This document shows, piece after piece, positions 2,641-27,602 of a stretch of 27,824 nt of DNA. Below the pieces are notes generated by a model. It ran no database searches. It saw only the letters and a program-made list of their open reading frames with translations, and was not told the origin of the DNA. Both the position numbers and the translations under genes were made by a program. Origin of the DNA: a virus; IMG/VR virus record IMGVR_UViG_3300017773_000099, positions 1 to 27,824 of that record. One strand, written 5' to 3'. Position 1 is the first letter of the stretch; every line of letters begins with the position of its first letter.

Positions 2641-3117
2641 ATGGCTTTGTCTAGGGATCAAATACATTTAGAAGATGCTATTGACATTAGACAAGTAAAA
2701 AATATAAAATTAGCTAATCAATTATTAAAATATAGAAGAGCTAAAAAGCAAGCTTCAGATCAACAAATAGCAGAGCGTAATATTGCAGCACAATCAGAAG
2801 CAAACGGTAAAGCTGCTCAAGCGGCAGAATTAGCAAAAGCTCAAGCCGAAACAGTAAAAGTAGAGGCTAAAATGAAATTATCCGAAGCTCAAACCCAATT
2901 TGATATTAAAAAATTAGAAGTTGAGGCTGCGACTAAAAAAGAGTTAATGCAATTTGAATTTGATTTGAACACTAAACTAAAAAGAATGGAGCTAGATAGC
3001 AAAGAAAAAATTGATATGCAAAAAGCTCCTTCTAATCCAGAGCCTAAAAAAGGTTTTGAATCTAGTGGTAATGATGTGCTAGGCGGAATTGACTTAAGTA
3101 GGTTTGAACCAAGATAA
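2641..3117 (+). CDS. Coiled-coil protein, probable detached C-terminus of the portal
   Basis: This 158-residue protein begins on the ATG that directly abuts the portal stop codon and lies in the portal frame. Its first 35 residues (with EDAIDIRQ and KLANQLLKYRR) are helical. Residues 40-130 form a long Ala/Lys/Glu/Gln-rich coiled coil without Pro or Gly kinks. The C-terminus is a flexible Pro/Gly tail. From memory, crAss-like and related marine portals end in such an extension, with a Gln at the position now occupied by TAA. I infer either a split portal made as two chains or a nonsense mutation with immediate restart. Alternatively it is an independent minor head or chaperone-like protein. 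There is no separate start context; translation would depend on reinitiation at the TAA-ATG junction. Confidence 0.6.
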   Translation: MALSRDQIHLEDAIDIRQVKNIKLANQLLKYRRAKKQASDQQIAERNIAAQSEANGKAAQAAELAKAQAETVKVEAKMKLSEAQTQFDIKKLEVEAATKKELMQFEFDLNTKLKRMELDSKEKIDMQKAPSNPEPKKGFESSGNDVLGGIDLSRFEPR

Positions 3118-8326: not shown

Positions 8327-11300
8327 ATGCCGGAAATTAAAAACACGTTTTTAGCTGGGCGCTTAAATAAAGATTTAGACGAACGCTTAATTGGATCCGG
8401 AGAATACCGAGATGCGCTTAACATAAACGTAGTGTCTTCCGAAAGCGATGATGCTGGTACAGTTGAAAACCTTATGGGCAATCAAATAATTTCAGCTGGT
8501 TCTAATACAATACCCGCTAATGCTAAAGTTATTGGTTCTGTTGAAGACGAGGCTAATGATAGAATGTTTTACATTTTAACTTCGCCATCGTATGACGGTA
8601 TATATGAATTTAATCAAACTAATAATACAATATCAGTATTAATAAGAGGAGATTTAAATCTTTCAGATGATTATCCAATTACAGGCATAAATATAATTGA
8701 TGATTTATTGTTTTGGACGGATGACTTAAATGAACCGCGTAAAATTAATACGGAAACATGGAAAGACGCCAACCACGTAAGCGTTCCTACTAAAATATTT
8801 AATAGAGCTTTTTCTGAAAGAGATATTACAGTAATAAAAAAACACCCAAAAGAAAAATTAAGCTTTGAAGTAAGCACTGATCCTGATGCAGACAAACTGC
8901 CATTTGAAGAAATATTCCCACAATTTGGTTATAGATGGAAATATTCGGATGGTGAATATAGTCCATTTTCTTTTTTCACTGAGCCTATATTTGTGGCAGA
9001 CGAATATAGTGCTTTAGATCACTATAAAGAAGGGTATAATGAGGCCGTTAGAAACATTGTAACAGAAATAACAATAGGTAATATTCCTAGAGGTCCTGAA
9101 GATGTTATTTCTATAGATATTCTATATACAGAGTCAATAAGTGCAACAATATATACTCTTAAAACTATTCTTAAAAAAGATTGGGGATATGGAAATGGTA
9201 TAGAATATATAGATGATCAAATATTTACAAAAAGATCTTTTTACTCTGCAATACCGGATAATCAGTTATCAAGACATTTTGATTCAGTGCCATTAAGAGC
9301 TAAAGCGCAAGAAATAACTGCAAATAGGCTTATATATGCAAATTATCTACACAATTTTGAACAACCAAAAACAGCTTCAATATCTGTATCACAACAACCA
9401 ACTGATTCAAACAATGGACTAAGTGTTAAAAGTTTTAGAGATTATGAAATAGGTTTAGCTTATGAGGATCAGTACGGAAGACAAGGTGCGCTTATAACAG
9501 GAGGGGCTGGTTATACTACAAAGTTTAGTACAAATAAAAGACAAACGCTAGACGCTAAAATAATAAGCACAGCTCCTAGCTGGGCAACACACTTTAAATA
9601 TTACATAAAAGATTCATCACAAGATCATCATAATTTTGTTTGTTATAATACATTTAACGACGGTGATGAAGCTAAAATAAATAGCGAGTTTATTTGGTTA
9701 CAAATACCTTCCTCTGAAAGAAACAAAATTGATGAAGATACATTTATAATACCAAGAAGACATACTCATAGCCCAACAGGTATTACAACAGGTGATGGTT
9801 CAAACCAATTAGGTTTTGTTACGCCACTAAATAATGTTAACATTAGAAATGTAAACGTAGCGTGGGAAGCTGATACAAACACTAAAGATAGGGTTTGTTG
9901 GGCACCTGGAAATGGAATTGCTGGGGGACCAGACTGGTATGATGGGTCTGGCCAACAAGACGATGTAAACGGTATGTCCCAGTCTAACCCCGAGGCTATA
10001 TTTACATGTGCAGTTCCCGGTAAATACACATTTGAATTCGAGGGTGAACTAGAGTGGTTCGGTGAAAACCAAGCTAGTAGTGGATATGTAAAAACCGCTT
10101 CTAGTTTTCAAGTAGCTAGAAATGGCCAAACGTTTAATGATTTAGGGGTTAATTTTGAGAAAGATCCTAGATTTAAAATAGCTGAGTTTACAGGGAATGG
10201 ATCGGGGGCTAATTTAGCTAGAGATTATAGGTTTTACTCTATAATGTCTGTTGATTTAGAGGCTGGCGATAAGATAAGACCTGTAATTGGGAGGTATAAG
10301 TGTAAAAGAAGAAAACGAGTACATGTTGGCATAAAGCAAGCTGAGTTTAGAACAGCTTCAACACCACCAGATCCTAACCAAAACGCTGATCCTGCTGTTG
10401 AAAAATTTAATTACGTTGTAAAAAACTTTTCAAGACATAAGGTTTTAGAAATTGAAAGTGAAGCACCTGATATTGTTAAGTCGCAATTACCAGTCGATTT
10501 AAGAAGGTTAGGGGCAACGGTTAAATTTACTAATGATGTCCATAGTAATAAAAACAGAATGTTTTTAAATACAGGCTTTAACGTTGGACATAATCAATTA
10601 GCAACTTCAAGCGATTACAGCGAGCAAAGTAAAGAATTATATTACGAAGCAGATCATAACCAACAAGGTTTGACTACAGCTTCTTTTATAATAGGACTTA
10701 ATTCTGTTTTAGGGTTAGCTGGTTTACCAGGTTTAGAAGTTTCAAACGTAGAACAAGGCCAATATGATGAAGCGCAGGTTATAGATGTTTCAGGTGTTGA
10801 AGGTGGTTTATGGTTTGGAGTAGGCGCTGGAGTTGTCCCAGAAACAGGAATAGCAAATAAAGTTAAAATAATGGAAATTGCTGTTGGATATTCATTTAAT
10901 GCGGATCCCGGTAGAGACTTTAATAGAGATACTATTAGGTTTACATTAGAAGAACCAATTGGTACAGACCCATTTGGTCAGAATTTTGCTATACACAAAG
11001 GAGATTTAACTGAAAATGCCTTAAAGAACTTATCTGGGTCTTTCTTTGTTAAAGTTAAAAGAGCAACAAATAATGAATACTCTTGGGAGGATTATAGCTC
11101 TGGCAAAGTGAAACCATTAGACGCATTACCAACAGGCCAATCTGTTTTTAATGAAGATAACGAGGTTCAAACGCTAAAAGCTATATGGTTTGAAACAATA
11201 CCCGCTATTGAAAAGAGTAATTTAAACTTATTTTGGGAAGCTAGTGAATCAATACCGATAGCACAACACGGTGATAGAATACAATTAGACTTTTACAACT

Positions 11301-12544
11301 GCGTAGCTATTATTGATGACGGCGTATTTATTGAAACACAAAGAATATTTGATCAATTTAACTCTGTTCAAATGACAAAAGGTGTTAGAGTAAATGTACC
11401 TCAAGAAAACTATGAGCAAGAGCGTAGAAAAACCGGTCTTATATACTCTGGTATTTTTAACTCTAGAACAGGCACTAACAGATTAAATCAATTTGTTTAC
11501 TCTGATGGTATAACAAAAGATCTTGAGCCTAACTATGGAGGTATACAAAAACTGCATACAAGAGACACCAACTTGGTTGCTTTATGTGAAGATAAAGTAT
11601 TTAGCATTATGGCTGATAAAGATATTTTATTTAACGCCGATGGCAACCCCCAAATCGTTGGCTCAAGAAATGTATTAGGTCAAGCAACACCTTTTGTGGG
11701 TGAATTTGGAATAAGTAAAGAGGCCCAATCGTTCGCCAGCTACGCTAATAGAATGTATTTTGTTGATAGTAGTAGAGGCTCTGTAATAAGATTGTCTACA
11801 GATGGCATTACGCAAATATCAGAGGCTGGTATGACTGATTTCTTTAGAGATAAACTAAAAAATAATGTAAATAAAATAATTGGAAGCTATGATTCTTATA
11901 GTGGAAAATATGTATTAACATTAGATGATTATAGTTTAACTTTTTCTGAGAAATCAAAAGGATGGGTTAGTAGAGTTTCATACAAACCAGAAAATGCTAT
12001 TTCATTAAATAACATATTCTACACTTTTAATAGTGGTAATTTATGGCAACATAATGTAGCATTTGCAAATCGTAATAATTTTTACGGAGTGCAATATCAG
12101 TCTACGTTGACAACCGTATTTAATCAGGAGCCTTCAAGTATAAAAGCTTTTAAAACTATTAACTATGAAGGTACAAAAGGATGGGAGGTGCCATTAATAT
12201 TAACCGACCAACAATCTGGATCTATTATTGATTTTGTTGCTAAGGAAGGTAAATGGTATAATAATATTAATGGAATAAGTAATAAAAACCTTATAAGCAA
12301 AATAGATAATCTAAACTCTACAAACGGAACAAACGGGGCTATTGATTTCTTTAAAGACGATAAAATTAAACGTAAAACTTATAATAGTATACAAAGCAAA
12401 AAGGTATATACATTTGTTGACGAAGACTCTTTGCACAACGACCATTTAGGTATTGGCAATTTAACCGGAGTAACACTAGTGGATGGCACAACAGCACCGT
12501 CACCAATAACAGGCCAAGGGACTATAACCTTTAATATAACATAA
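8327..12544 (+). CDS. Tail nozzle / stabilisation protein (P22 gp10-like, T7 gp12-like) with an inserted domain
   Basis: This 1405-residue protein would form the distal tail tube that stabilises DNA in the filled head. The N-terminus (NTFLAGRLNKDLDERLIGSG, then EYRDALNINV and GTVENLMGN) is the hallmark, from memory, of crAss-like stabilisation proteins. Repeated beta segments with WTDDLNEPRKIN, ANRLIYANY and a C-terminal VFSIMADKDIL ... FVDSSRGSVIRLS region fit a propeller-like body. The segment SERNKIDEDTFII (to residue 478) would normally run straight into SRHKVLEIESEAPD (from residue 702). Here about 220 residues intervene, with a beta-sandwich look (GKYTFEFEGELEW, AGDKIRPVIGRYK). I infer an inserted jelly-roll domain. 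The next gene, a giant fibre, starts one base after the stop. Confidence 0.8.
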   Translation: MPEIKNTFLAGRLNKDLDERLIGSGEYRDALNINVVSSESDDAGTVENLMGNQIISAGSNTIPANAKVIGSVEDEANDRMFYILTSPSYDGIYEFNQTNNTISVLIRGDLNLSDDYPITGINIIDDLLFWTDDLNEPRKINTETWKDANHVSVPTKIFNRAFSERDITVIKKHPKEKLSFEVSTDPDADKLPFEEIFPQFGYRWKYSDGEYSPFSFFTEPIFVADEYSALDHYKEGYNEAVRNIVTEITIGNIPRGPEDVISIDILYTESISATIYTLKTILKKDWGYGNGIEYIDDQIFTKRSFYSAIPDNQLSRHFDSVPLRAKAQEITANRLIYANYLHNFEQPKTASISVSQQPTDSNNGLSVKSFRDYEIGLAYEDQYGRQGALITGGAGYTTKFSTNKRQTLDAKIISTAPSWATHFKYYIKDSSQDHHNFVCYNTFNDGDEAKINSEFIWLQIPSSERNKIDEDTFIIPRRHTHSPTGITTGDGSNQLGFVTPLNNVNIRNVNVAWEADTNTKDRVCWAPGNGIAGGPDWYDGSGQQDDVNGMSQSNPEAIFTCAVPGKYTFEFEGELEWFGENQASSGYVKTASSFQVARNGQTFNDLGVNFEKDPRFKIAEFTGNGSGANLARDYRFYSIMSVDLEAGDKIRPVIGRYKCKRRKRVHVGIKQAEFRTASTPPDPNQNADPAVEKFNYVVKNFSRHKVLEIESEAPDIVKSQLPVDLRRLGATVKFTNDVHSNKNRMFLNTGFNVGHNQLATSSDYSEQSKELYYEADHNQQGLTTASFIIGLNSVLGLAGLPGLEVSNVEQGQYDEAQVIDVSGVEGGLWFGVGAGVVPETGIANKVKIMEIAVGYSFNADPGRDFNRDTIRFTLEEPIGTDPFGQNFAIHKGDLTENALKNLSGSFFVKVKRATNNEYSWEDYSSGKVKPLDALPTGQSVFNEDNEVQTLKAIWFETIPAIEKSNLNLFWEASESIPIAQHGDRIQLDFYNCVAIIDDGVFIETQRIFDQFNSVQMTKGVRVNVPQENYEQERRKTGLIYSGIFNSRTGTNRLNQFVYSDGITKDLEPNYGGIQKLHTRDTNLVALCEDKVFSIMADKDILFNADGNPQIVGSRNVLGQATPFVGEFGISKEAQSFASYANRMYFVDSSRGSVIRLSTDGITQISEAGMTDFFRDKLKNNVNKIIGSYDSYSGKYVLTLDDYSLTFSEKSKGWVSRVSYKPENAISLNNIFYTFNSGNLWQHNVAFANRNNFYGVQYQSTLTTVFNQEPSSIKAFKTINYEGTKGWEVPLILTDQQSGSIIDFVAKEGKWYNNINGISNKNLISKIDNLNSTNGTNGAIDFFKDDKIKRKTYNSIQSKKVYTFVDEDSLHNDHLGIGNLTGVTLVDGTTAPSPITGQGTITFNIT

Positions 12545-12545
12545 T

Positions 12546-15500
12546 ATGGCTAACTATACTTACACTACAAATAGCATAACGGGTACCGTCGGAACAACCG
12601 CTGGTACCCAGACGGCAATACTAATGTTATCACCTAAATCAGGGTATAGACTTGTTGCTTCAGACTTTTCTATTGCTAATACAGCTAATTTAGAAAATAT
12701 AGTTGTAACTCAACAGGGAGCTAATGTTAGAATTACATTTGATTTAGTTGATACAATATTATTTGATAGTGAAGATGTTGAATTAGATATTAATATATCT
12801 GGAGACGCTAGAATATCGGTAATACATTTTGACGGTGATTTAGATTTTAATAACGATCCTAATGATGGTTATGATTTTATAGTTACCGACAACGACGGCA
12901 ACATATCTGATGATGGTGCTTTAAATGTAGACACTGATGGCGAGCCTGGAGATACCAAAACTGTTGGTACTGTTATAATTACAACCGGTGATGGACAAGA
13001 ATTGCCTGAAGATGATAACGGACCTATTGAACCAGACGTTGACTTACCTTCTCCATATTCGTTAGGAGATGGTGTTTTAACAGATGATGGCTGGGTATTT
13101 GACATTATAGTTACAATACCAGACGATGACACAACTGGCCAAAATGATGCAGTAACAACAGATGATATAACAGGAGTTGGTGATACCGTTTCTACCGGCC
13201 AATCGTCAACAGACACTAAAGATGTTGAATGGATAAAAGTTGATACGAGCGGTTTAGACGGATTAAACGGAGGATTTATACTAATCACAGCCGCAGGCGA
13301 TCCGGGAGCTTCTGGATCGTTCTCATTAACTCCTACGGTTGAACCAGCTGGTTCTTCTGCAACTTATGATGTAATATCCGGCACACTAACACTAGATTCG
13401 GAGGGGAAATTTAAAAAAATAGTTAGAATACCAAGCGCAGCTGGAGATGAAAATGTTGGAAATGCAATATGTACTCCAGAAACACCAGATGATGTAGATG
13501 ATATAGTTTGGGATTTTGATTTTAACGAGGATTCTGATACAAATCCAGTAGATATTACTGATTTACCTGACCCAATAAAATTAAAAAATGAAAGTAAAAT
13601 TACAATAAGTTTTATTTCTCCCGATTCTAATATACCTCAGCCAGTTGATGGAGGGGCAACTATTGGTTCTGATTGGAGATATAATGTGATATTGGGACCT
13701 AAAACAGAAGGTAGTAAAAGCAACGGAGGCGTAATAAACATTGAGGTGCCGCCGCCTTCTGGGGGTACTTGGACTTTAAATGGTACTTCTGCCGAAAACA
13801 CCGCTAATGAGGTTAAAATTATTGAAAGTGAAGAAATAATATTAAGGACTGAAAATGCAGACCCTAATTGTGATTTTTGTAGAGGAAAAGCTATAAAACT
13901 TTCAAATGGTAATTTATCTTTATTTTTAGAATTTTCAGAAGGTGTTTTTCAGAATGGTGATTCATTATACGAAATACCACTGGCGGCCAACATAGCGTAT
14001 ACTGAACCAGCGGTAATATTAAACTTTAGTGATGGAGCAAACTATACAGTTGATGATTATCAAATAGTTTATTCAGGCACAGCTGGCGGTTTAGTTACAG
14101 GTGCTGATTTATCAGTTACTTTAACAGCAAACAGTGGTTATACATGGCATGATACAGATTTTGTAGCAAATATCGCTAGCTTTGTTGCAAATGGTCATTC
14201 AAACTCAAATATTGCCTCTGTAACTGTTACGCCGACCGTTGCTAGTTTGCAAGGAGCGGCTTATACAACGCCAACTTCAACAATTACTATTGCATGGACA
14301 TTAACAGGCAACTACGCAAACACTCCTGTAGTTTATGATTTTACACCAACAGGCGGCCCAAAAGCTGTAGCAAACGTTAATTTTAACGAGGGCGATAATT
14401 TTGAAGGCGCTAACAACGGTGCTACTAATTACACGATAAACAATATACAAGAAATAACAAGTGTTGAAGGAAGACCATATTCTGAAGCATACACATTAAC
14501 AGCAAACACTGGATTAATATTTGGGACACCACACAACACAACTATTGCTGTAACATCTGGCTCTGTTACCGCACCAACCGGTACAGGCGCTACATTAACA
14601 GGTACAATAACTGGAACAATTCCATCTTATGACACTATAGTTAACATAAATTTAACTGGTAAAACCGGTATTGATACAGACGGTGATGGTATATTAAATG
14701 AGGATGACACTGATGATGATGGAGACGGGGTGCTAGACGCTAATGATGCATTCCCATTAGATCCTACAGAAGACACCGACACAGACAGCGATGGAACCGG
14801 CGATAACGCTGATACCGACGATGATAACGACGGTGTAGTCGACACAGAAGATGATTTTCCGTTAGATGATACAGAAGATACTGACACAGATGGAGATGGT
14901 ATTGGAGATAACGCCGACACTGATGATGACGGTGATGGAACTCTTGACAGCGAAGATGACTTCCCACTCGACGCAACAGAAGACACTGATACGGACGGGG
15001 ATGGCACTGGAGATAATGCTGATACTGATGACGATAACGATGGTGTAAGCGACACTGACGAAGTGGCTGACGGGACAGATCCGCTAGACGCTGATTCAGA
15101 TGATGACGGAACAGGTGATGCAACCGACGTTTTCCCTAATGATCCAAACGAGGACACTGATACCGATAGCGATGGTGTTGGAGATAATGCTGACACTGAT
15201 GACGATAACGATGGTGTTTCTGACACAGATGAGGTTGCAGATGGCACTGATCCATTAGACGCTGATTCAGATGATGATAGCGTCAACGACGGTGAAGATG
15301 CTTTCCCACTCGATCCTAACGAAGATACAGATACTGATGGAGATGGTACAGGTGACAACGCTGATACAGATGATGATGGGGACGGAGTTTTAGATGGCGA
15401 TGACGCATTTCCATTAGACCCAAATGAAGATACTGATACTGATGGTGACGGGACTGGTGATAATGCCGACACAGACGACGACAATGATGGGGTTTCCGAC

Positions 15501-17516: not shown

Positions 17517-17840
17517 ATGGAGGAATTAAAACTAACATTTAATAATAAAGTAAACGTGTCTCTCGTTCCGGGAGACACTGTTTATTACTTAGACGGTACA
17601 AGCATTGTAACACTAGGCTCATGCACATCAGTAGCTGAGGATAGGTTATCATGTAATGTAAACCGCGATTTAGAAGTAGCAGCACCGGCTGTTAGTAATT
17701 ACATATTTTTTTCAAAACCAGCAGAAGCAGAATTATCTGGTATTATTGGTTATGAAGCAACAACTACAATTATTAATACAAGCACCGATCGTGCAGAATT
17801 ATATTCTATTTCAAGTGAGGTGTTTCAATCTTCTATTTAA
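17517..17840 (+). CDS. Small virion-associated protein of unknown function
   Basis: This 107-residue protein has a beta-rich N-terminus (KLTFNNKVNVSLVPGDTVYY), two Cys residues at about 39 and 46, and a C-terminal part with YIFFSKP, then GIIGYEATTTIIN and TDRAELYSISSEV. I recall similar short proteins with an FSK ... AELF/Y ... GSE-like C-terminus in many marine tailed phages next to tail genes, so it is likely a minor structural protein. There is no membrane segment or signal. It starts 6 bases after the fibre gene and overlaps the next gene by one base (TAATG), so its translation is probably coupled to that of both neighbours. A fibre accessory or attachment role is possible but unproven. 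Confidence 0.5.
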   Translation: MEELKLTFNNKVNVSLVPGDTVYYLDGTSIVTLGSCTSVAEDRLSCNVNRDLEVAAPAVSNYIFFSKPAEAELSGIIGYEATTTIINTSTDRAELYSISSEVFQSSI

Positions 17841-18244
17841 TGAAATTAAAAGTAAGAAAACTTATTGAAACAGACTGGAACTTTTTGCCTAAATGGTGGG
17901 AAGAATATAACCAACCGGTACCACAAAGAGACTTTTTACCAGATAATGGGCTAGGTGGCTTTATGGTATGCAAAGAGCATGACCCAATCGCGGCTATGTT
18001 TCTTTATACAACAAATTCAAAAACTGCAATTCCAGCTATAGTTATATCTGATAAATATTATAAGGATAACGATAGAAGTGATGCATTACAGTTATTGGTG
18101 GATTTTACAACAGACTTCGCGGAAGATCTGGGGTATAAATATTCATTTACCTGGGCTAAGCCCGGTATATTATTAGAAAAATACGAACAAACAGGTTTCA
18201 CGGTAGATAAAACGCCGAGTTATGAATTAATAATACAATACTAA
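17840..18244 (+). CDS. GNAT-like acetyltransferase fold protein, degenerate
   Basis: This 134-residue protein has the layout of a GNAT N-acetyltransferase. It opens with a beta strand and helix (KVRKLIETDW, then FLPKWWEEY). A central strand pair (GGFMVCKE, then AAMFLYTTN) precedes a loop and a helix (RSDALQLLVDFTTDFAEDLG). The C-terminus is typical (EKYEQTGFTVDK, then YELIIQY). The acetyl-CoA pyrophosphate loop normally reads Q/R-x-x-G-x-G/A. Here the best match, DRSDAL, lacks the Gly, so activity is doubtful. It lies inside the virion operon, overlapping the preceding stop and one base ahead of the ejection gene cassette. Small GNAT-like genes in phage structural regions are familiar to me, but their substrate is not known. 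A structural or chaperone use of the fold is an alternative. Confidence 0.58.
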   Translation: MKLKVRKLIETDWNFLPKWWEEYNQPVPQRDFLPDNGLGGFMVCKEHDPIAAMFLYTTNSKTAIPAIVISDKYYKDNDRSDALQLLVDFTTDFAEDLGYKYSFTWAKPGILLEKYEQTGFTVDKTPSYELIIQY

Positions 18245-18245
18245 T

Positions 18246-18872
18246 ATGGGATCAATCATAGGAGGAGCAGCGCAAGTGGCTGGATCACTTGTAGGTGGTG
18301 GCGCTCGAAGACGAGAGCAAAGAGCCGCTAGAGCTGAATTTCAACAACAAAGAGATGCTTTAGCAAACACACAGTTTACTAACCAATTTGCAGGGCTAGA
18401 AAATGTAGCAGAAGATTTAACTGTAAACCAACAGGCAAGTCAATTCCAAGCACAACAAACCGATGCTGCTTTAGCGCAAGGTTTAGACGCTATTGTTGCT
18501 AGTGGCGGTGGTGGCGGTGGTGCACAAGCTATAGCACAAGCCGCTTTGCAATCAAAACAAAATATATCAGCTGATTTAGCTAGGCAAGAACAAAAAAACC
18601 AAGCAATTAGAACTCAAGAAGCGTCTAGGTTGCAAACGCTAGAAGCTAGAGGCGCAGACGATTTACAACTACGCCAATACTCACAAAGGCAACAATTAAC
18701 AGGTATGGCTAAAGGAAGATTAGACGCTGCTAATTTAGCTAGAGAACAAGCAACACAAGGTTTAATAGGTGGAATAGGACAAATAGCTGGAGGCTTAGTA
18801 ACAGGAGGAGCATTGCCAGGTGGTGATGCTATAGACGAAAAAATTGGAGGAGCAATTAAAGGTTTATTCTAA
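18246..18872 (+). CDS. Internal virion / DNA-ejection protein A (T7 gp14-like by position)
   Basis: This 208-residue protein has short hydrophobic Gly/Ala-rich ends (SIIGGAAQVAGSLVGGG and GLIGGIGQIAGGLVTGG) around a long Gln/Ala/Arg-rich helical core. A six-Gly run lies near residue 87. Small proteins with amphipathic or membrane-active Gly-rich ends and Gln-rich coiled coils are typical of podovirus ejection proteins such as T7 gp14 and P22 gp7. These leave the capsid with the DNA and enter the host envelope. Position supports this: it opens a set of three genes of rising size before the end of the operon. Its stop overlaps the next start (TAATG). The family match is by architecture, not recognised sequence, so another virion role remains possible. 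Confidence 0.55.
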   Translation: MGSIIGGAAQVAGSLVGGGARRREQRAARAEFQQQRDALANTQFTNQFAGLENVAEDLTVNQQASQFQAQQTDAALAQGLDAIVASGGGGGGAQAIAQAALQSKQNISADLARQEQKNQAIRTQEASRLQTLEARGADDLQLRQYSQRQQLTGMAKGRLDAANLAREQATQGLIGGIGQIAGGLVTGGALPGGDAIDEKIGGAIKGLF

Positions 18873-20968
18873 TGAGCAACAAAATAAATAAGCAGTTAAA
18901 AAAGGGAAGCCCTTTATTTGACTTAGGACAAGGAATATCAAACCTTATAGATTTTGAATCTATAGGTAGAGCCAGTAATCCCAATAGATCTACAGGCACC
19001 GATTTGTTAGGAAGAGGTATGATACACTTAGGCTCTTTGTTTTCTAAAATGGACGAAGACTTTGATCCAGGTGAAAAAATACCAGAAGAAATACAAAAAC
19101 CTGTTATAAGTGAGGAGCAAAGAGAAAGAACAAAAGCAGTTATTCCTGGTGTTAAAATTCCAATAAAGGATTTTGAATTGCCTTCAGATAGTAAATATCC
19201 TATAGTAACAACTATACCAGAAAAGAAGAGACCACCAGCAGACCCACCAGCAGACCCACCAGCTCTAATTGGGGATATTAACGTTGATACAACCACCCCT
19301 ACTGAAACTGCTAATAATATATACGATTCTACTACGCAGTCTTACACGGGTACAATGCAAGATGCTGGTAGCTTAGGGCCTAAAAGCAGAACTCGAAGAA
19401 AAGCTGAAAGCGGCAAATCTACAAATATACAAGGAGAAATAGCTGGAAAAAGAGCAGCGGCAACTGCAGAAGGAGGGTTTTTTAGTAATTTAGGAGACTA
19501 TATTTCAAGTTTATTCAGACTTAGTCCTGAGGAATCTAGCCCATTAGAAAGGCATTTTAATGATAACCCTGGCCAATTAGAAGCTTTTAAAGCTTTAAGA
19601 TATAAAAGAAAGCATAAAAGGGAGTCTCCTTTACGTAAAATTGCGCATTTGCATGCTTCACCTTTTGTTAAAACAAATGTTGGACCAGGAAGTCAAACAC
19701 CTAATATGCAAAACGTTGATTACCGTTATGCACAAAGAGCATATATACCTAGCTATGCAGAACAAGGGTTTGGGCAAGCAGCCGCTGAAGGTTTTAACTT
19801 AGCCATTGATAGGTCTAATTACAAGAAGGCTGTTCAAGCTGATTACGATAAAGAAGTCGAAGACACAATGGGTGAGCTTGTCATTGATACCGATTACGCA
19901 GGTGATGCTTTTAATAAACAAAAATTAGATTTTGGTTTAGACTTAAAAAAGCAAGCTTACAATGACATGATTGACTACACTAAGGGAAATATTGATTTTG
20001 CTGAAAAACAATTTAGATTAGAAAAGTATAAAAACAGAGCAAAAGTAGTTGAATCCGCAGGTAACGCTTTAGCTCAGCTAGCAGAACAAGTGCAAACAGA
20101 TAAAGGTATGCATGATTTAGGAGCTTCTAAACCAGAAATTGTAGCTTTTTATAATACCTTGAGAGAAAACCCGGGGTCTTTTAAAATGGAAACAATTGAT
20201 GGGCAAGAATATATTGTTGGTAAAACAATGGTAGACGGCAAGCCTGCTGATGATGTAAAATTACCATTAGCACAAATAGCAAGTGGTAAGGCAGGTTTAA
20301 AGTTAGTTCCAAAAGTTAATTCTCAAGTGTACGTTGATGCTGCTAATAAAACAGCAAGTGGATATATAAAAGAGTATGCAACAAAATACGGTATTGGTAA
20401 AGGAAACGTTCCTTTTGATCAAATAAAACCACGAATAGAACAATACTTTATGTCTGTTATTGGGCAAGATGAAACTAAGTTGCGATCATTAGCTTCGCAA
20501 TTAACTGATGGTAAATTTGATTACGATGGTTATGAGCAAATGATTAATACAAAAGATCCTGATCAAAAGAAAGCTAATATGCAAGCTATGCAGATGGACA
20601 TTGTTCAAGATTTAATGCAAGACTTTCAGGCGCAATATTTTCCAGAATCTGTAACTACTATAGTTGACCCTAGTAAAACGGGTATTACACCAGCTAGCGC
20701 AACAAAAGAAGGTACTGTTGACGCTAGAAATAGAAGAGATACAGAAGCTTACGCTGCAAAGGTTGATTCACTAGGTGAAATAACGCCTGAAAACGTTTCT
20801 AATCTAATTGCTTCTGGTGGCGGTAAAGTTACAAATGCTAGATTTGATGAACAAGGCAGGCTTCAATTAAAGGTTGGTAAAACGCAGTACTCGTTATCAG
20901 CCGACCCAGCAATAAGAAGACAACAACTTATATTAATAATGGGAGGAAAAGAACAATACATAAAATAA
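18872..20968 (+). CDS. Internal virion / cargo protein B (T7 gp15-like by position)
   Basis: I do not recognise a named family in this 698-residue protein. Residues 1-200 look disordered and charged, with a PPAD repeat at about 121-131 and a basic patch before 205. A very basic stretch (RYKRKHKRE) lies near residues 245-253. Residues 270-400 are helical, with coiled-coil-like segments (FGLDLKKQAYNDMID, QFRLEKYKNRAKVVE). The C-terminal 300 residues are mixed alpha/beta, including an EYIVGKTMVDGKPADD turn and a helical DIVQDLMQDFQAQYF segment. No membrane helix stands out. It lies between a gp14-like and a gp16-like gene, overlapping the first and one base from the second. The likely role is packaged cargo that forms part of the ejection channel. 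The basic patch could bind DNA inside the head. Confidence 0.52.
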   Translation: MSNKINKQLKKGSPLFDLGQGISNLIDFESIGRASNPNRSTGTDLLGRGMIHLGSLFSKMDEDFDPGEKIPEEIQKPVISEEQRERTKAVIPGVKIPIKDFELPSDSKYPIVTTIPEKKRPPADPPADPPALIGDINVDTTTPTETANNIYDSTTQSYTGTMQDAGSLGPKSRTRRKAESGKSTNIQGEIAGKRAAATAEGGFFSNLGDYISSLFRLSPEESSPLERHFNDNPGQLEAFKALRYKRKHKRESPLRKIAHLHASPFVKTNVGPGSQTPNMQNVDYRYAQRAYIPSYAEQGFGQAAAEGFNLAIDRSNYKKAVQADYDKEVEDTMGELVIDTDYAGDAFNKQKLDFGLDLKKQAYNDMIDYTKGNIDFAEKQFRLEKYKNRAKVVESAGNALAQLAEQVQTDKGMHDLGASKPEIVAFYNTLRENPGSFKMETIDGQEYIVGKTMVDGKPADDVKLPLAQIASGKAGLKLVPKVNSQVYVDAANKTASGYIKEYATKYGIGKGNVPFDQIKPRIEQYFMSVIGQDETKLRSLASQLTDGKFDYDGYEQMINTKDPDQKKANMQAMQMDIVQDLMQDFQAQYFPESVTTIVDPSKTGITPASATKEGTVDARNRRDTEAYAAKVDSLGEITPENVSNLIASGGGKVTNARFDEQGRLQLKVGKTQYSLSADPAIRRQQLILIMGGKEQYIK
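19232..19264 (+). repeat. Short 12-bp tandem repeat encoding PPAD
   Basis: A 12-base unit (CCACCAGCAGAC) is repeated 2.75 times in frame within the 698-residue cargo protein, giving PPADPPADPPA at residues 121-131. The copies are identical at DNA level, so it is young or slippage-prone. It lies in an apparently disordered linker. Confidence 0.8.
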
Positions 20969-20969
20969 T

Positions 20970-23900
20970 ATGGAAGAAGAATACATGACAAATCCTAATT
21001 TGGAGAATGGACAATCGCAAGATATTTCACAACTAGGAACTGAGGAAGATGATGTTCAACCATTTGATCAATCTACATTAGATCAACTTGAAGAGCGTGC
21101 GCTCAAACAAAGAGAGGCTGAAGAATTTGAAACAGCTGTAAAGATTAGAAGACAAGGAATAAAAGAAGCAGCCGAACAATATGATCTACCTGAGTGGTGG
21201 GTCAATAAATTAACTGGCTTTAAAGCGTCTTTAGTTAGCATAGGCGAAAATTTTAATAGCCTTATTGAAGACGCTGTAGTTGATACATATGATGAACTTG
21301 TTGGTGGTAATAGGAGTGCTGAAGAAAAGAAAGTTTTAGCAGATCAGATATTTAGCTTAGGGGGTATTTTACCTAATACAGAAGAAGAGCGGTTAGAAAG
21401 GTATGGCATTGATCCGGAGGTTGATCTTGTTGCTTCAAAAGTTGATTATGGCACTGTAATAGATGAAAACACCGGCCAGGTAAGACAAAAAGACTTTGTT
21501 GATTTAGTAGGGGAGGGCGAGTATAAAGCAGCTGCAGACGACTTAGCCGCTAATTTATTTCAAGCGGCCCCTTCTGTTCTTATAGCCATGACTGGTATAG
21601 GTGGAGTAGGTGTTTTAGGCGGTTCAGCTGCGGGGCAGAAAGCAAAAGAAATTGATAAAAAATACGGAACTGATATTGACTATAGCCAAAAGTGGGCTGA
21701 TGCAGCTACTACTGGGGCTGGTGAATTTGCTACAGAATTAGTAACATTTGGCTTGGCTAAAGGATTAGGTAAAGTCTTTACTAAATATGGAGCGGATTCT
21801 GTGCCAAAAGTTCTTAAACAGTTTGGGGATGTTGCTTTTGGATTTACATCCGAAGGTGCTTCTGAGATTGGAGCAGACGCTATAAGCAGAGCTGCAGATA
21901 AATATTATTTAGGCGACGATAAAGCTTTTGAAGGATTTGGTCGAGCATCTGTAGTTAACGGTGTTGTTGGTGGTATAATGGGAGCTGGTATGTCATTTAT
22001 AAATAATGGCCGACCTACAGGAACTATTGCGCAGAAAGTTGTAACGCCGGCGCCAATTAGAAATGCTCAAAAGAAAGCGGCGATAGAAATACAAATGTTG
22101 CAAAATGAAATAGAGAATGCAACAAGTAAAGAGGCTGCAGATATACTTAGCCAACAGCTTAGAGATAAACAAAATTCATTACGTGATTCAAACAAGATGG
22201 TGCAAAACCAACTTAGTAATTTATCTGATGAGCAATTAAAAAGATTAGCTGAGGTTAGTGGTAAAATAGCTTTATATGAAGACATGGTTAATGACGATAG
22301 TTATGATGATGCTTCAAAAGGTTTATTTAGATCACAAATTGCTGAGTTAGAAAATGAAAAAAATACAATATTTTCTAATCCAGATATAACCGATATTAAG
22401 AAAGCGGAACCAGTAAGCAAGAAGAATGTTGAGTTATCTAAGGAAGCACAAGATCTATACGAAAACAACAGCAACCCTACGGTTATTGCAGATAAGCTTG
22501 GCGGTATTGCAGGTACTGTAGCAAATAGAAAGTGGAGCTTAGTTGCTCCTGATTTACAGGTTGGTACTTATCAAGACTTTTTATCAGCACTTAAGTTTGG
22601 CAAAGGTGGTATTGTAGATATGGTTCGCACATATAATAAAGAAAAAAACGATTCTATAGCCGCGTATGTTGCATCATTGATGGATAAAAGAGCTGATAGA
22701 ATCATTGGGAAGTTTACAAAAAGAAAAGCAGATACATCTGTAGATACGGCTAGGGGAATCATGGCTGAAGAAACTGGCCCCACAGCCGCGGAGCTTGCTG
22801 ATAGGCTAACAATACCTCAAAACGCAATTGAAAAAGCAGCTACTAATGCTGAATTATTCAATTTAAAGCTTGACAAGATATCTAATATTAAAGACTATGT
22901 TACGCAACAAAAAGATTTCTTTAAAACATATTTAACTCCTGAAATAAAAAGTTTTTTAAAACCAAAAGGATCTCAATTAGAGAAACAAAAGGCTTTAAAG
23001 AACTATGTTTATAAAAACGTAGATACCCTTAAGGAATTATATATGGCAGCACCAGGGCTGAATAAGGTGCGTTCTGGGCCAATTGCAACGTGGAGCATTA
23101 CGCCTCCAACTAATAAAGAGTTTGCGGATTACATTATGGGTGAAGATTTAGATTTATCCACAGCTAAGGGACGCAATGCTTTAAACAGCAGAAAAGACAA
23201 GGTTGCGGAAAGAATTGCTGACAGTATAGGACAAAAGGCTTGGCAAGAGTTTGTTGGAAGTAACAAAGAGGCTCAGGAAAATATATCAAATCTTAGTAAA
23301 CAACTTATTGAAAAAACATCTGAAAGTATATATACACCTAAAGATATTATAACAAAAATAGGTGACCCGGCTGTATTTACTAAAAAGGCAAAAGCTTTAG
23401 CTAAAATAGTTGTTGATAATAAGGGCTATGATAATGATGCATTTAATAATGCAGCGTTTGGCCCTTTTACCAAAAGCTTTATAAAAAAAATGTGGGACAA
23501 TGGTGACCTTGTAGGCAAAACTTATGGCGGTATTATATATGAGGACGCTTCAAAAGCATTTTTGAAAGCAGCTGGAATTAATGTGTTGGAGGTACAATCA
23601 GGAGGCTTTGATAGTACTGTTCCTGATTTGCAAATACAAGTTAAAGATGGAAGGCTTTTAAACGTAGAATATAAATCTAATAAAGGAGATAGATTAGGGC
23701 AGTTCACAATTCAAATTCAACCAGATGGTAATATTGTTTATATTGAAAACAGAAAGGAGATAGATATAAATGAATACCCAGGAGGAGATGTGATAAATAA
23801 ATTTATTCAAAATAAATTTAAAAACAAATCTTTCAAGCAAGTAATTGATAAAATAAATGAAATAGAAAACAGAACAGGTACTGATAAAATTACAGCAATT

Positions 23901-26900
23901 CCATTTGGTACAAAAATAAAGCAAAATACTTGGGATCAAATATTAAAACTGCCAGCATACAGAGAATTAGTAGAAACAATAGAAATACCTATTGAAGCTG
24001 TAATAAAACATTATACTGGTAAAGGGCCTGATAAATCTTCTTTTTTAATACAAATAGGAGACAGTGGGTTATATCACTTTAAACAGCCTATAAAAGGTAT
24101 ACCATCTAAAAAGTTTGAAGGTAATGTTGTTGCAAGGTTTAGATTAAAAAGCGGAGGAGGTATGTCTAAAACAGGCTCAGCTTCGTTTAGTTATACGGCA
24201 GAGCTAGGGTTACAAGGCAAATTTGAAAAATCTGATTTTAATTTAGATAATAAAGAAAACCTTGCAGAATTTGCCGCTGCAGTTGATAATATAAAGCCAG
24301 AAGATAAACTTAGTTTTCAATTAAGAAAGCAAGAAGCGTTAGAAGGTTTAAGAGACCCTAAAGAAAAACAAATAAATAGCGCTTTAGCTAACCATTTTGA
24401 AACAATAAGCAACATACCAGCTACAGAAGACGCGTCTAGAACATTAACAGCTATGCTTGAAAATGCCTGGCAGGGAACAGTTGATAGCACTACAAATAAA
24501 ACCACAGCTAATCAATATTTGCAAGACGAGCTTGGCCTTACCGAAGAGCAAGCTAAATCTGTTACCGCTAGAACAAATGGGTTTCAGCATGGTAATTTTA
24601 TTTTTATAAATAAAGACACCGCGAATATGGATACTATGTTTCATGAATTCCAGCATATATGGAATAAAATAGTATACCAACGTTCACCCCGTGTTTTTAA
24701 CGCTATTTATGAAAAAATAAAAAATGAAGCTCCCGAGCTTTATGCAAAACAGGTTAAAAGAATCAAAGAGGCTGGCTATAATTTTAAAGAAGACTCTTTT
24801 GAATGGAAGGATGAAGTCATAGCCGGTTTAGGTGGATTAAATGCTGCTAAAGAATTTAAGACCGACGCTCAGAAAAAATCTTTCATGGATTTAATGAAAG
24901 AGTACTGGGATATTGTAAAAAAATTCTTAGGCATAACTAAAATGGCTAAAGACAAATCACTTCAGGATATGACTGTTGAAGAAGTTCTTGATGTTATGAC
25001 AGCTGAGGTATTAAGCGGAAAGCCTGGCTCTGTATTATCAAAAATGAAACCAGAAAGCTGGTTAAAAACTAGGATAATAAAAGCGGATCCATCTTTTAGT
25101 ATTGCAAAAGATAAACAGTTTCAAGGTTTACAAGCATTAAAAAATGAATATAGAAAATCTAAGGATTTAACCAAAGCAATAGAGGCTGGGTATAATGCTG
25201 TAAAAGATTCATATTCTTTAGAAACATGGGCCGAATTTGTTGAAAGTGCCGTAAAAGAAACTAACGTAAATAATAGTAAAACATTATACATAGCGAAAGC
25301 AACGTGGTTGGCTAGCAATGAAATATCACTAGATAATATAAAAGAATTACAAGATTTGAATTTTACTGAAGAATTAAATCGTAAAGCACGTAATCTTATA
25401 TATACAACTAAAAGCAAAGGAAAACCAACAAAGTGGTTTATACCACCAAATGCTGAAGATTTTAGAGGGTTACTATACACGTTATTCCCTGATGGCAAAG
25501 CGGGCAAAGAGGCTAAAGAGTTTTATACTAAATATATTTTAGATCCTTATCATAGAGGGGTGCAGGCTGCAAACCAAGAAGTTGTTAATAAACTAAAAGC
25601 TGTTTCCGAAATAGTTAAGGATGTAGATATTAATAAAGACATCGAGGGAACACCATATAATATTGGCACTGCTGTTAAAGCTTACAATTGGGTACGTAAT
25701 GGTCAAGATCCATTGCCAAATTCAAAAAGCTCACGGAAACAAGATATTATTGACAGAATGATCGCAACTGTTGAAAGTAACCCTAAACTAGTTGAGTTAG
25801 CTGATTTCTTAAATGATAATGTTGAAATAAATTACAGCGATAGAATGCTTACGGAAAGTTTAGGACAAACAATAATGTCTGAAGTGCAAAAAGGCGTAAG
25901 ATCTAAACATTTAGAAACATTCGCTAGAAACGTAGATGCTATTTTTGATCAAACTAATTTAGACCAATTAGAAAAACAATTTGGTAAAAAATACGTTCAA
26001 GCACTAAGGGGCACTATTAAACGTATGAAAACGGGTCGTAACAGATCTGGGTTAGACGCACAAAGTAATGTATTTGCCAAATGGCTAGGACGTTCTGTTG
26101 GGTCTACTATGTTTATTAACCGCAGATCTGCTTTATTACAAACTATTTCTTTTATAAACTTTATTGGTAAAGACAACAACAACTTATTCCAAGCTACAAG
26201 AGCTCTCGCTTCATCAGAAGCAAATGCCGTATTTAAAAAGCTATGGACTAGTGATTATCTTGTTAATAGGCGTACGGGTGCAAAGTTTGATGTGCTTGCT
26301 GACGAAATTGCTGGTGAAGAAAATATAATTGACAAGATATTAAACGCAGGTTTCTGGCCAACAAAAATGGCAGATAGTATGGCTATTGCTTTTGGTGGAA
26401 CTCCTTTCTATATAAATACTAGAGACGCTTTAATTAAAGCTGGCATGAGTAAGAAAGAAGCTGAAGCTGAAGCAATGCAACAATGGATAGAATCTGCTGA
26501 AGAAACTCAGCAATCATCTGACCCATCTAAAATATCAGAAATACAAGCGTCTACTGTTGGTAAAATTATATATGCGTTTGCTAATACACCTTTTCAATAT
26601 GCAAGATACGCAAAAAGAAAGATGCAAGATATTGCCAGTGGCAGATCTAAAAATCTTCGCAAAGATATAGGATCTATATTTTACTACACAGTAGCACAGG
26701 CTGTAATGTTTAATATGCTGCAGAGCGGTTTACTCGCTTTAATTATGTTTGGTGATACTGATGATGAAGAAAAAATTGATGAGTTACAGCTTCAAGCGAT
26801 TGAGCGTTCATTAACTTCGTTTTTAAAGTCATTAGGTAACCCTGGAGCTGTTACAGCCGCAACATATGCTGTATTAAAAGAGGCTATGCAAGAAAGAACT

Positions 26901-27602
26901 TCTGGCGAAAAAATAGCATTGTCTGCTACTGAAATATCTCCACCGCTTAATTCCAAGCTTAAAGATTTAAACTCTGCCTATTGGGCGTCTAAATATGATG
27001 ATTATTTAGGTGCTATGGGTAAAGTTGGTTCTTTTGTTGGCGTACCTTTAGATAATATTTTAGCTATTACAAATTCATTAGCCGGTTTATTTAATGATCA
27101 GCTTGATACTTGGCAAAAAATAATGTTGCAATTAGGTTATAATGAATACGAAATTGCCCCTGATGTTGCCAAAGCTAAAAGAAAGAAAAAGAAAGAGCCT
27201 GAATTTAAAGAGGATACTTGGAATGATAGTGAATGGGATAATGCAGATGATTGGACAGACGAGTGGAAAGATACTCCTGTTAAAAAACTTGAAAGAGGTG
27301 TAGCTGGAGTCGCCAATAGAGATGGGTCAATAGAAGTAGACCCTAATTTATCCCCTGTTGAACGTGAAAAAACAATTGCTCACGAAAAACAACATGTAAA
27401 GGATATAAAAAACGGCAAGTTAGATTATGATGATGACTACGTTTACTGGAACGGTAATAAGTATAAGAGAAAGAATGGCAAGATATACTATAATGGAAAA
27501 TGGTATATTGAAGGCCATAAAGATTTACCGTGGGAGAAGAAAGCATATAATGCTGAACCTTCAACCGCAGAAGTTAAAAAGAAAATAAAACTTTATAAAT
27601 AA
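20970..27602 (+). CDS. Giant polyvalent ejection protein: nuclease-like and two zinc-peptidase-like domains (T7 gp16 position)
   Basis: This 2210-residue protein is the largest gene and ends the operon, where T7 places gp16. I infer a protein packed in the head and injected with DNA. Residues 30-110 are helical, with membrane-like segments at about 200-222 and 328-345. A coiled coil spans 366-440. A PD-(D/E)XK nuclease-like domain lies at about 855-915 (E858, D886, E900, K902). A zincin-like HEFQH motif is at 1225-1229, with E1282 as possible third ligand. A segment near 1489-1535 (FIPPNAEDFRGLLY) is familiar from marine phage giants. Residues 1672-1977 resemble large polyvalent protein domains, with hydrophobic helices near 1900-1925. 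A second HEKQH site is at 2138-2142, with E2189 or E2196 downstream. No lysozyme or transglycosylase motif was seen. An alternative start is Met6. A terminator follows at once. Confidence 0.7.
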   Translation: MEEEYMTNPNLENGQSQDISQLGTEEDDVQPFDQSTLDQLEERALKQREAEEFETAVKIRRQGIKEAAEQYDLPEWWVNKLTGFKASLVSIGENFNSLIEDAVVDTYDELVGGNRSAEEKKVLADQIFSLGGILPNTEEERLERYGIDPEVDLVASKVDYGTVIDENTGQVRQKDFVDLVGEGEYKAAADDLAANLFQAAPSVLIAMTGIGGVGVLGGSAAGQKAKEIDKKYGTDIDYSQKWADAATTGAGEFATELVTFGLAKGLGKVFTKYGADSVPKVLKQFGDVAFGFTSEGASEIGADAISRAADKYYLGDDKAFEGFGRASVVNGVVGGIMGAGMSFINNGRPTGTIAQKVVTPAPIRNAQKKAAIEIQMLQNEIENATSKEAADILSQQLRDKQNSLRDSNKMVQNQLSNLSDEQLKRLAEVSGKIALYEDMVNDDSYDDASKGLFRSQIAELENEKNTIFSNPDITDIKKAEPVSKKNVELSKEAQDLYENNSNPTVIADKLGGIAGTVANRKWSLVAPDLQVGTYQDFLSALKFGKGGIVDMVRTYNKEKNDSIAAYVASLMDKRADRIIGKFTKRKADTSVDTARGIMAEETGPTAAELADRLTIPQNAIEKAATNAELFNLKLDKISNIKDYVTQQKDFFKTYLTPEIKSFLKPKGSQLEKQKALKNYVYKNVDTLKELYMAAPGLNKVRSGPIATWSITPPTNKEFADYIMGEDLDLSTAKGRNALNSRKDKVAERIADSIGQKAWQEFVGSNKEAQENISNLSKQLIEKTSESIYTPKDIITKIGDPAVFTKKAKALAKIVVDNKGYDNDAFNNAAFGPFTKSFIKKMWDNGDLVGKTYGGIIYEDASKAFLKAAGINVLEVQSGGFDSTVPDLQIQVKDGRLLNVEYKSNKGDRLGQFTIQIQPDGNIVYIENRKEIDINEYPGGDVINKFIQNKFKNKSFKQVIDKINEIENRTGTDKITAIPFGTKIKQNTWDQILKLPAYRELVETIEIPIEAVIKHYTGKGPDKSSFLIQIGDSGLYHFKQPIKGIPSKKFEGNVVARFRLKSGGGMSKTGSASFSYTAELGLQGKFEKSDFNLDNKENLAEFAAAVDNIKPEDKLSFQLRKQEALEGLRDPKEKQINSALANHFETISNIPATEDASRTLTAMLENAWQGTVDSTTNKTTANQYLQDELGLTEEQAKSVTARTNGFQHGNFIFINKDTANMDTMFHEFQHIWNKIVYQRSPRVFNAIYEKIKNEAPELYAKQVKRIKEAGYNFKEDSFEWKDEVIAGLGGLNAAKEFKTDAQKKSFMDLMKEYWDIVKKFLGITKMAKDKSLQDMTVEEVLDVMTAEVLSGKPGSVLSKMKPESWLKTRIIKADPSFSIAKDKQFQGLQALKNEYRKSKDLTKAIEAGYNAVKDSYSLETWAEFVESAVKETNVNNSKTLYIAKATWLASNEISLDNIKELQDLNFTEELNRKARNLIYTTKSKGKPTKWFIPPNAEDFRGLLYTLFPDGKAGKEAKEFYTKYILDPYHRGVQAANQEVVNKLKAVSEIVKDVDINKDIEGTPYNIGTAVKAYNWVRNGQDPLPNSKSSRKQDIIDRMIATVESNPKLVELADFLNDNVEINYSDRMLTESLGQTIMSEVQKGVRSKHLETFARNVDAIFDQTNLDQLEKQFGKKYVQALRGTIKRMKTGRNRSGLDAQSNVFAKWLGRSVGSTMFINRRSALLQTISFINFIGKDNNNLFQATRALASSEANAVFKKLWTSDYLVNRRTGAKFDVLADEIAGEENIIDKILNAGFWPTKMADSMAIAFGGTPFYINTRDALIKAGMSKKEAEAEAMQQWIESAEETQQSSDPSKISEIQASTVGKIIYAFANTPFQYARYAKRKMQDIASGRSKNLRKDIGSIFYYTVAQAVMFNMLQSGLLALIMFGDTDDEEKIDELQLQAIERSLTSFLKSLGNPGAVTAATYAVLKEAMQERTSGEKIALSATEISPPLNSKLKDLNSAYWASKYDDYLGAMGKVGSFVGVPLDNILAITNSLAGLFNDQLDTWQKIMLQLGYNEYEIAPDVAKAKRKKKKEPEFKEDTWNDSEWDNADDWTDEWKDTPVKKLERGVAGVANRDGSIEVDPNLSPVEREKTIAHEKQHVKDIKNGKLDYDDDYVYWNGNKYKRKNGKIYYNGKWYIEGHKDLPWEKKAYNAEPSTAEVKKKIKLYK

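What the first reader, a model, noticed from the sequence alone, without database searches (positions are those of the whole stretch)
20970..27602. Giant injected 'polyvalent' protein combining a nuclease-like site and two zincin-like sites
One 2210-residue ejection-position protein carries a PD-(D/E)XK-like site, an internal HEFQH site and a C-terminal HEKQH site, separated by helical and membrane-like regions. Large polyvalent proteins of phages and conjugative elements (class described by Iyer and colleagues) are thought to enter with the DNA and counter host defences. This protein fits that plan and sits where T7 encodes gp16. I infer a multi-tool early-infection effector that may cut host DNA and host or phage proteins, or open the envelope. 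The exact combination is the best candidate here for an undescribed system.
Basis: partly seen in the sequence, partly recalled or inferred. Interest (0 to 1): 0.75.

Follow-up and report, generated by a model that had tools for sequence, protein, structure and literature searches.

The report
Modular giant phage ejection-type protein
A marine Bacteroidetes phage carries one 2,210-residue protein, probably packed in the virion and ejected at infection, that joins a conserved scaffold to a DNA-cutting-type domain and two metalloprotease-type domains, and related phages carry other enzymes in the same place; this is a new variant of the known 'polyvalent protein' theme.

Summary
The ORF at 20970-27602 encodes 2,210 aa with a PD-(D/E)XK signature (E858, D886, E900, K902), HEFQH (1225) and HEKQH (2138). 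None looks accidental. The four nuclease residues are invariant in 57/57 sequences that cover them. The domain matches a stand-alone cyanophage family (hhalign 97.8%, E 1e-12). Both HExxH sites are invariant among aligned relatives, and both peptidase domains model confidently. The nuclease domain modelled poorly.

The window is a fragment of a marine flavophage-type podovirus with a crAss-like muzzle. The giant follows two smaller genes, as crAss001 gp47 follows gp45-46. It resembles T7 gp16 by gene order only. About 25 IMG/VR relatives share a ~620-aa helical core with shuffled enzyme modules: the nuclease in eight distinct giants, a HAD/polynucleotide-phosphatase-type domain in five. The full combination with two zincins was seen only in the window's clade (three members).

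Verdict: a polyvalent-type (Iyer class) probable virion cargo protein, a new variant of a known kind. Iyer et al. report only ParB-like DNases in polyvalent proteins, though PD-(D/E)XK domains in crAss-like giants are published. Ejection, substrates and anti-defence function remain inference.

The parts
20970..27602 (+). giant ORF, 2,210 aa, modular virion-cargo/ejection-type protein
   Evidence: synteny in relatives
20970..22109 (+). residues 1-380: fast-evolving N-terminal region with one weak hydrophobic stretch at 199-217 (window 21564-21620)
   Evidence: (matches only L035, L006 and, from about residue 166, L050 and L054), (omega 0.56 against L006)
22110..23438 (+). residues 381-823: helical 'mid' module shared with 14 relatives
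23439..24254 (+). residues 824-1095: PD-(D/E)XK-type nuclease domain; E858, D886, E900, K902; C-terminal IQIGxxGLY...F...R block
   Evidence: hhalign 97.8%, E 1e-12 to the cyanophage family; P-SSM2 Q58MG2 by structure, E 3.8e-5; 57/57 invariant
24399..25229 (+). residues 1144-1420: zincin-like metalloprotease domain 1 (HEFQH 1225-1229, third ligand candidate E1282)
   Evidence: (15 relatives plus Gundel_1), (pLDDT about 77-91 around the site; M34 zincins Z 4.9-5.7)
25230..27179 (+). residues 1421-2070: conserved helical core, best-conserved part of the family
   Evidence: (20 IMG/VR relatives)
27267..27599 (+). residues 2100-2210: C-terminal mini-zincin-like domain (HEKQH 2138-2142, E2189 in LPWE)
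   Evidence: (phrog_16532 E 6.5e-7, phrog_87 metallo-protease E 4e-4), (pLDDT about 75-89; XacN1 ORF071 hhalign 95.6%)
18872..20968 (+). 698-aa protein, second gene of the putative cargo trio (position of crAss001 gp46 / T7 gp15)
   Evidence: family conserved in IMG/VR relatives
18246..18872 (+). 208-aa protein, first gene of the putative cargo trio; homologous to Gundel1_72 and phi38:1 gp99 (both annotated as structural)
   Evidence: (E 4e-9, 3e-4)
8327..12544 (+). crAss-type muzzle (tail tip) protein, places the phage
   Evidence: (PF25731 E 9.6e-20, PF25729 E 1.5e-12)

Best explanation
The giant is a virion cargo (ejection) protein of a marine flavophage-type podovirus, built as a polyvalent protein. 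A conserved C-terminal helical core of about 620 aa, with the two genes before it, would serve packaging and ejection. Attached modules would travel with it: a PD-(D/E)XK-type nuclease, an M34-like zincin, and a C-terminal mini-zincin. Most likely order of events: the protein is packed near the portal, leaves ahead of or with the DNA partly unfolded, and refolds in the cell. Zincin domains then process the polypeptide or cut a host protein, and the nuclease acts on DNA at entry (host or resident-element DNA, or ends and branches of the incoming genome). Shown by sequence: modules, conserved catalytic signatures, constraint, gene order, module exchange. Inferred: virion location, ejection, all substrates, all timing.
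For: Gene order: muzzle-fibre-small-small-208 aa-698 aa-giant in the window, repeated in relatives. The same muzzle-then-cargo order in crAss001 gp44-gp45-gp46-gp47, where gp45-gp47 were found in virions by mass spectrometry (PMC10172136). Counterpart giants are annotated 'structural protein' in Gundel_1, phi38:1 and elemoA. Shared core in 20 IMG/VR relatives plus five in a second clade. Nuclease: hhalign E 1e-12 and 57/57 invariant residues. Zincin 1: confident local fold and M34 matches, agreeing with Iyer et al., who linked the N4 vRNAP zincin to the same fold class (PMC5512222). C-terminal domain. Constraint. Module exchange: HAD/PNK-type domain in five relatives, with module order reversed in L052.
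Against: No protein of this family has been shown in virions by data read here; the basis of the 'structural' annotations is not stated in the records or in the papers searched. Sequence comparison finds no homology of the giant to T7 gp16 or crAss001 gp47. Some relatives lack zincin 1 or the nuclease, so neither is essential to the scaffold. The stand-alone nuclease relative in cyanophage P-SSM2 sits beside purH genes, not virion genes, so an entry function is not intrinsic to the domain. Nuclease model confidence is low.
Confidence: 0.6

Rival explanations
1. The nuclease domain serves the phage's own DNA rather than the host's: it trims or resolves ends, branches or recombination intermediates of the incoming genome, while the zincins only mature the giant during assembly.
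For: The same nuclease family exists as a stand-alone gene in a metabolic region of cyanophages; the exchange slot in relatives holds a polynucleotide-kinase-phosphatase-like HAD domain, which also fits DNA or RNA end processing; Iyer et al. offer replication start as one use of polyvalent DNases (PMC5512222).
Against: A physical link to a virion-type scaffold is not needed for a replication enzyme; the nuclease is absent in many relatives, so it is not essential to genome processing.
Confidence: 0.25
2. The giant is mainly a structural/ejectosome protein; the zincin and nuclease modules are assembly-stage processing or remnant domains with no role in the infected cell.
For: The core is the best conserved part; annotations in relatives say only 'structural protein'; processing of virion proteins by phage proteases is established knowledge.
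Against: Catalytic residues are invariant across deep divergence and dN/dS is low, which argues against remnants; modules are swapped for other enzyme types, unlike an assembly protease.
Confidence: 0.1
3. The giant is not in the virion at all; it is an intracellular late protein translated next to tail genes.
For: No mass-spectrometry evidence was found here for this family.
Against: Conserved position after tail and small structural genes in the relatives examined; crAss001 proteins at that position are in virions (PMC10172136).
Confidence: 0.05

Closest known systems
Polyvalent proteins of phages and conjugative elements (Iyer et al. 2017, PMC5512222)
   Same: Several unrelated enzyme-type domains in one large protein, zincin-like metallopeptidases, late/virion gene neighbourhood, core shared with a gut-phage protein that carries InPase.
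   Different: None of the Pfam polyvalent-associated (LPD) domains was found in this protein. Its DNase is of PD-(D/E)XK type, whereas Iyer et al. [quoted passage not shown]
crAss001 cargo proteins gp45, gp46, gp47 (PMC10172136)
   Same: Same gene order behind a homologous muzzle; giant third protein; gp47 has one HExxH (HEAFH, residue 2157).
   Different: No detectable sequence homology. gp47 is annotated as RNA-polymerase-associated; the window giant has no DxDxD outside the C-terminal peptidase loop.
Crassvirales giant transcription-block proteins with PD-(D/E)XK domains (Yutin et al. 2021, PMC7886860)
   Same: PD-(D/E)XK nuclease inside a giant protein of a Bacteroidetes phage.
   Different: There the giants belong to the RNA polymerase block; here the scaffold has no polymerase signature. 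Homology between the two nuclease domains was not tested.
Stand-alone cyanophage protein PSSM2_192 and phrog_26930
   Same: Full-length homology with the window nuclease domain and identical catalytic signature.
   Different: Single-domain protein of 225 aa outside the virion genes; function unassigned in PHROGs.
Giant structural protein Gundel1_74 of Tenacibaculum phage Gundel_1 (Pachyviridae)
   Same: Same place relative to the 208-aa homologue, zincin-1-type domain and part of the core.
   Different: No nuclease and no C-terminal mini-zincin found; carries a weak GNAT match instead (below Pfam cut-off).
T7 gp16 and N4 gp50 (ejected giants of podoviruses)
   Same: Large last protein of an ejected set; N4 gp50 also has a zincin-type HExxH domain (PMC12633501).
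   Different: No homology to T7 gp16 found and no Pfam transglycosylase hit; no polymerase signature, unlike N4 gp50.

Membership tests
Polyvalent proteins (Iyer et al. 2017) | two or more domains of unrelated biochemical type in one polypeptide | tested here: met
   nuclease-type plus two zincin-type modules plus helical core
Polyvalent proteins (Iyer et al. 2017) | encoded next to virion/late genes (phage type) | tested here: met
Polyvalent proteins (Iyer et al. 2017) | packed in the virion and delivered with the DNA | not testable with these tools
   only database annotations 'structural protein' in relatives
Polyvalent proteins (Iyer et al. 2017) | homology to known polyvalent domains | tested here: inconclusive
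   no Pfam LPD family at E <= 1; core homologous to a gut protein with InPase; HMM scans can miss remote members
PD-(D/E)XK nuclease superfamily | E ... (P)D ... (D/E)xK active-site signature conserved in the family | tested here: met
   E858, D886, E900, K902 invariant in 57/57; hhalign to cyanophage family
PD-(D/E)XK nuclease superfamily | alpha-beta-beta-beta-alpha-beta core fold | tested here: inconclusive
   predicted helix followed by strands in that order but pLDDT about 40-50 over the site; no PDB relative by sequence or Foldseek
PD-(D/E)XK nuclease superfamily | metal-dependent nuclease activity | not testable with these tools
   needs purified protein
Zincins, domain 1 (M34-like) | HExxH plus a downstream third ligand | tested here: met
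   H1225, E1226, H1229, E1282 invariant in 14/14; E1282 as the ligand is inferred
Zincins, domain 1 (M34-like) | zincin fold | tested here: inconclusive
   confident local model; the seven best VIA-align rows are M34 zincins, Z 4.9-5.7, rmsd 4.0-5.3, next row 4.0; Z below 8, so supportive and not conclusive
Zincins, C-terminal domain | HExxH plus a downstream third ligand | tested here: met
   19/19 HExxH and near-invariant LPWE; phrog_87 metallo-protease E 4e-4; XacN1 ORF071
Zincins, C-terminal domain | zincin fold | tested here: inconclusive
   pLDDT 75-89 with active-site helix and strands, but the fold search barely covered this part
T7 gp16 homologues | detectable sequence homology to T7 gp16 | tested here: not met
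   hhalign probability 0.3%
Crassvirales virion RNA polymerase | DxDxD catalytic motif conserved in the family | tested here: not met
   only DYDDD at 2152 inside the peptidase domain; not an invariant motif in the core

The most novel reading that the evidence does not exclude
The conserved core is a general ejection chassis of a large group of marine Bacteroidetes phages, onto which enzyme cassettes (PD-(D/E)XK nuclease, HAD phosphatase, metalloproteases) are exchanged, so that each phage lineage delivers its own entry toolkit, much as polymorphic toxins exchange tips. In the window's clade the kit is a DNase with two proteases.
Probability: 0.4. Interest if true: 0.75.

Novelty: new variant of a known kind. 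Interest (0 to 1): 0.55.

Why it matters
If right, marine Bacteroidetes phages, relatives of the crAss group by their tail tip, deliver exchangeable enzyme sets through one conserved giant protein. That gives a defined scaffold, a defined exchange slot, and catalytic residues to mutate. It would also give a first function lead for a widespread unassigned phage nuclease family (phrog_26930) and add a PD-(D/E)XK DNase to the polyvalent repertoire. The cultured relative Gundel_1 makes virion content and zincin function testable; a cultured carrier of the nuclease is still needed.

Tried and rejected
T7 gp16, crAss001 gp47, gp49 and gp50 as sequence homologues of the giant, and gp45-gp47 as homologues of the two smaller genes: no match. 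Sequence search of PDB with the giant, nuclease, cyanophage family, zincin and core alignments: no relevant relative. Foldseek on both models: no PDB match with E <= 0.001; no nuclease or T7-core fold stood out, which shows nothing either way. RNA polymerase in the giant: no conserved DxDxD. The first relatives search with the single protein failed because of its patterns; the neighbouring 134-aa gene gave the relatives. I first took the nuclease for a recent gain of the window's clade; the search with the joint alignment refuted that by finding a second deep clade. The idea that mass spectrometry of phi18:1 supports the phi38:1 annotation was dropped: phi18:1 is described as a 39.2-kb phage unlike phi38:1 and the record's note could not be traced. 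The 97 and 264 nuclease hits are counts from pattern scans, not a census.
Full report
WHAT IS THERE. The ORF at 20970-27602 on the + strand is open for 2,210 codons. It carries HEFQH at residue 1225, HEKQH at 2138, and a PD-(D/E)XK-like signature: E858, P885-D886, E900-Y-K902, Q911. Two HExxH motifs are not expected by chance at this composition (0 of 20,000 shuffles). The region called membrane-like is weak: one borderline hydrophobic stretch at 199-217 and none or one in the relatives scanned.

THE PHAGE. The window is a whole IMG/VR virus record of 27,824 bases, a fragment. It holds the end of the large terminase, portal, capsid and tail genes, and a muzzle protein with the Crassvirales muzzle families PF25731 and PF25729. 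The closest annotated portals are MW202828 (53.6%) and Maribacter phage Panino (51.6%); the others are phages of Flavobacterium, Cellulophaga and Tenacibaculum. I infer a marine flavobacterial-type podovirus. The host itself is not shown.

POSITION. Behind the muzzle and a fibre-type protein come 107 aa, 134 aa, 208 aa, 698 aa and the giant. The order about 200 aa, 450-830 aa, giant repeats in most relatives. In the L048/L050/L054 group the first gene is larger, 404-462 aa. A profile of the 208-aa family finds Gundel1_72 (E 4e-9) and phi38:1 gp99 (E 3e-4). crAss001 shows the same order, muzzle gp44, then gp45, gp46, gp47. These cargo proteins were found in crAss001 virions by mass spectrometry and are proposed to be ejected partly unfolded (PMC10172136). 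The giants of Gundel_1, phi38:1 and elemoA are annotated 'structural protein'; I could not trace the evidence for that. The T7 gp16 comparison holds for gene order only.

RELATIVES AND MODULES. Pattern scans brought about 25 related giants, some of them near copies. Per segment: the core 1421-2070 and the C-terminal domain occur in 20 IMG/VR relatives, the mid region in 14, zincin 1 in 15 plus Gundel_1, and this nuclease in L006 and L035. Zincin 1 is absent in L013, L040, L042 and L056. A second clade (L079, L081, L082, L093, L105; L080 looks like a copy of L079) has the same core (33-40% identity in the pairs listed), the nuclease directly before it, and a HExxH site near residues 580-650 instead; it lacks the C-terminal domain. 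That HExxH region is only weakly linked to zincin 1 (hhalign probability 50%). On the core tree the nuclease needs two changes, and one origin is not ruled out. In other relatives the slot holds different material, including a HAD-type domain with FDDTL and a TAR motif in L041, L052, L053 and L058 (phrog_415 polynucleotide kinase in those four records plus that of L007). The order of two slot modules is reversed in L052 compared with L058. A human-gut protein (MT836673) shares the core (E 2.7e-9) and carries InPase. LPD3 and LPD23 also matched one member each of the set; they probably belong to the same protein, but L006 and L007 were not excluded for them.

NUCLEASE. tblastn found a weak match (E 0.1) in cyanophage P-SSM2. 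The whole stand-alone protein has the same layout, and profile comparison gives 97.8% probability, E 1e-12, over 210 columns. Foldseek against viral models ranks the P-SSM2 protein third (E 3.8e-5). Its family, phrog_26930, has no assigned function. Across 59 non-identical sequences the four catalytic positions are invariant wherever covered. AlphaFold gave only pLDDT about 40-50 over the site, because only three close sequences could be used, so the fold is argued from homology and signature.

ZINCINS. Domain 1 models well around the active helix. The seven best VIA-align rows are M34-type zincins, anthrax lethal factor chains and PPEP-3, Z 4.9-5.7, against 4.0 for the next row. Iyer et al. 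report a link of the N4 vRNAP zincin to the same fold. This is a shared fold, not a shared function. The C-terminal domain resembles small stand-alone phage proteins (XacN1 ORF071, hhalign 95.6%) and phrog_87 metallo-protease.

CONSTRAINT. dN/dS against L006 and L035 is about 0.06-0.1 for nuclease and zincin 1; dS is near saturation, so this is a rough guide.

MECHANISM. I commit to a virion cargo protein of the polyvalent kind: a conserved core for packing and ejection, with enzymes attached for use at entry. Self-processing or host-protein cleavage by the zincins and DNA cleavage by the nuclease are inferred. The nuclease substrate is open: host DNA, resident elements, or the phage's own ends.

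NOVELTY. Polyvalent proteins, their zincins, and ejected giants are known. PD-(D/E)XK domains in some giant transcription proteins of crAss-like phages are also known (PMC7886860). Iyer et al. [quoted passage not shown]

Noticed in passing
window 772-3117: The portal reading frame is interrupted by an in-frame TAA (2638-2640) directly followed by ATG. All 13 related records searched match the full portal; 12 have an uninterrupted frame and one (G018) has a TAG inside. Nonsense change, split gene or assembly error cannot be told apart.
   Followed up: partly
window 12546-17510: 1,654-aa protein with four TSP3 repeats (PF18884, E 2.5e-13). Relatives have a similar N-terminus (L006, L009, L013) or a quite different 1,018-1,066-aa protein in that place: likely a variable fibre.
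   Followed up: no
window 17840-18244: 134-aa protein, 84-91% identical in ten relatives, matching phrog_17252 of unknown function; its sequence looks GNAT-like by eye only.
   Followed up: no
L041, L052, L053, L058, L007 (slot of the giants): HAD/polynucleotide-kinase-phosphatase-type domain in the giants (phrog_415, E 5e-10 to 5e-13), in place of the nuclease.
   Followed up: partly
L059 and loci: Stand-alone members of the nuclease family are common in phage contigs of IMG/VR (97 and 264 pattern-scan hits) and have no assigned function (phrog_26930).
   Followed up: partly
L017:35444-40933: Panino giant is annotated 'tRNA methyltransferase', apparently from one domain at 381-599 (phrog_4752, E 1.7e-16).
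   Followed up: no
window residues 625-740 of the giant vs L006: 99% identical block inside a protein that is about 70% identical overall, suggestive of recent recombination.
   Followed up: no
L075 gp47, residue 2157: crAss001 gp47 has a zincin-like HEAFH site with a plausible downstream acidic ligand; no statistical link to the window's domains.
   Followed up: partly
L076 (PBPJ01000015.1): A Woesearchaeota MAG contig from the Red Sea encodes the core (51% identity), probably a misbinned phage contig.
   Followed up: no
L055:4415-10392: The related giant frame is broken into ORFs of 1,401 and 557 aa.
   Followed up: no
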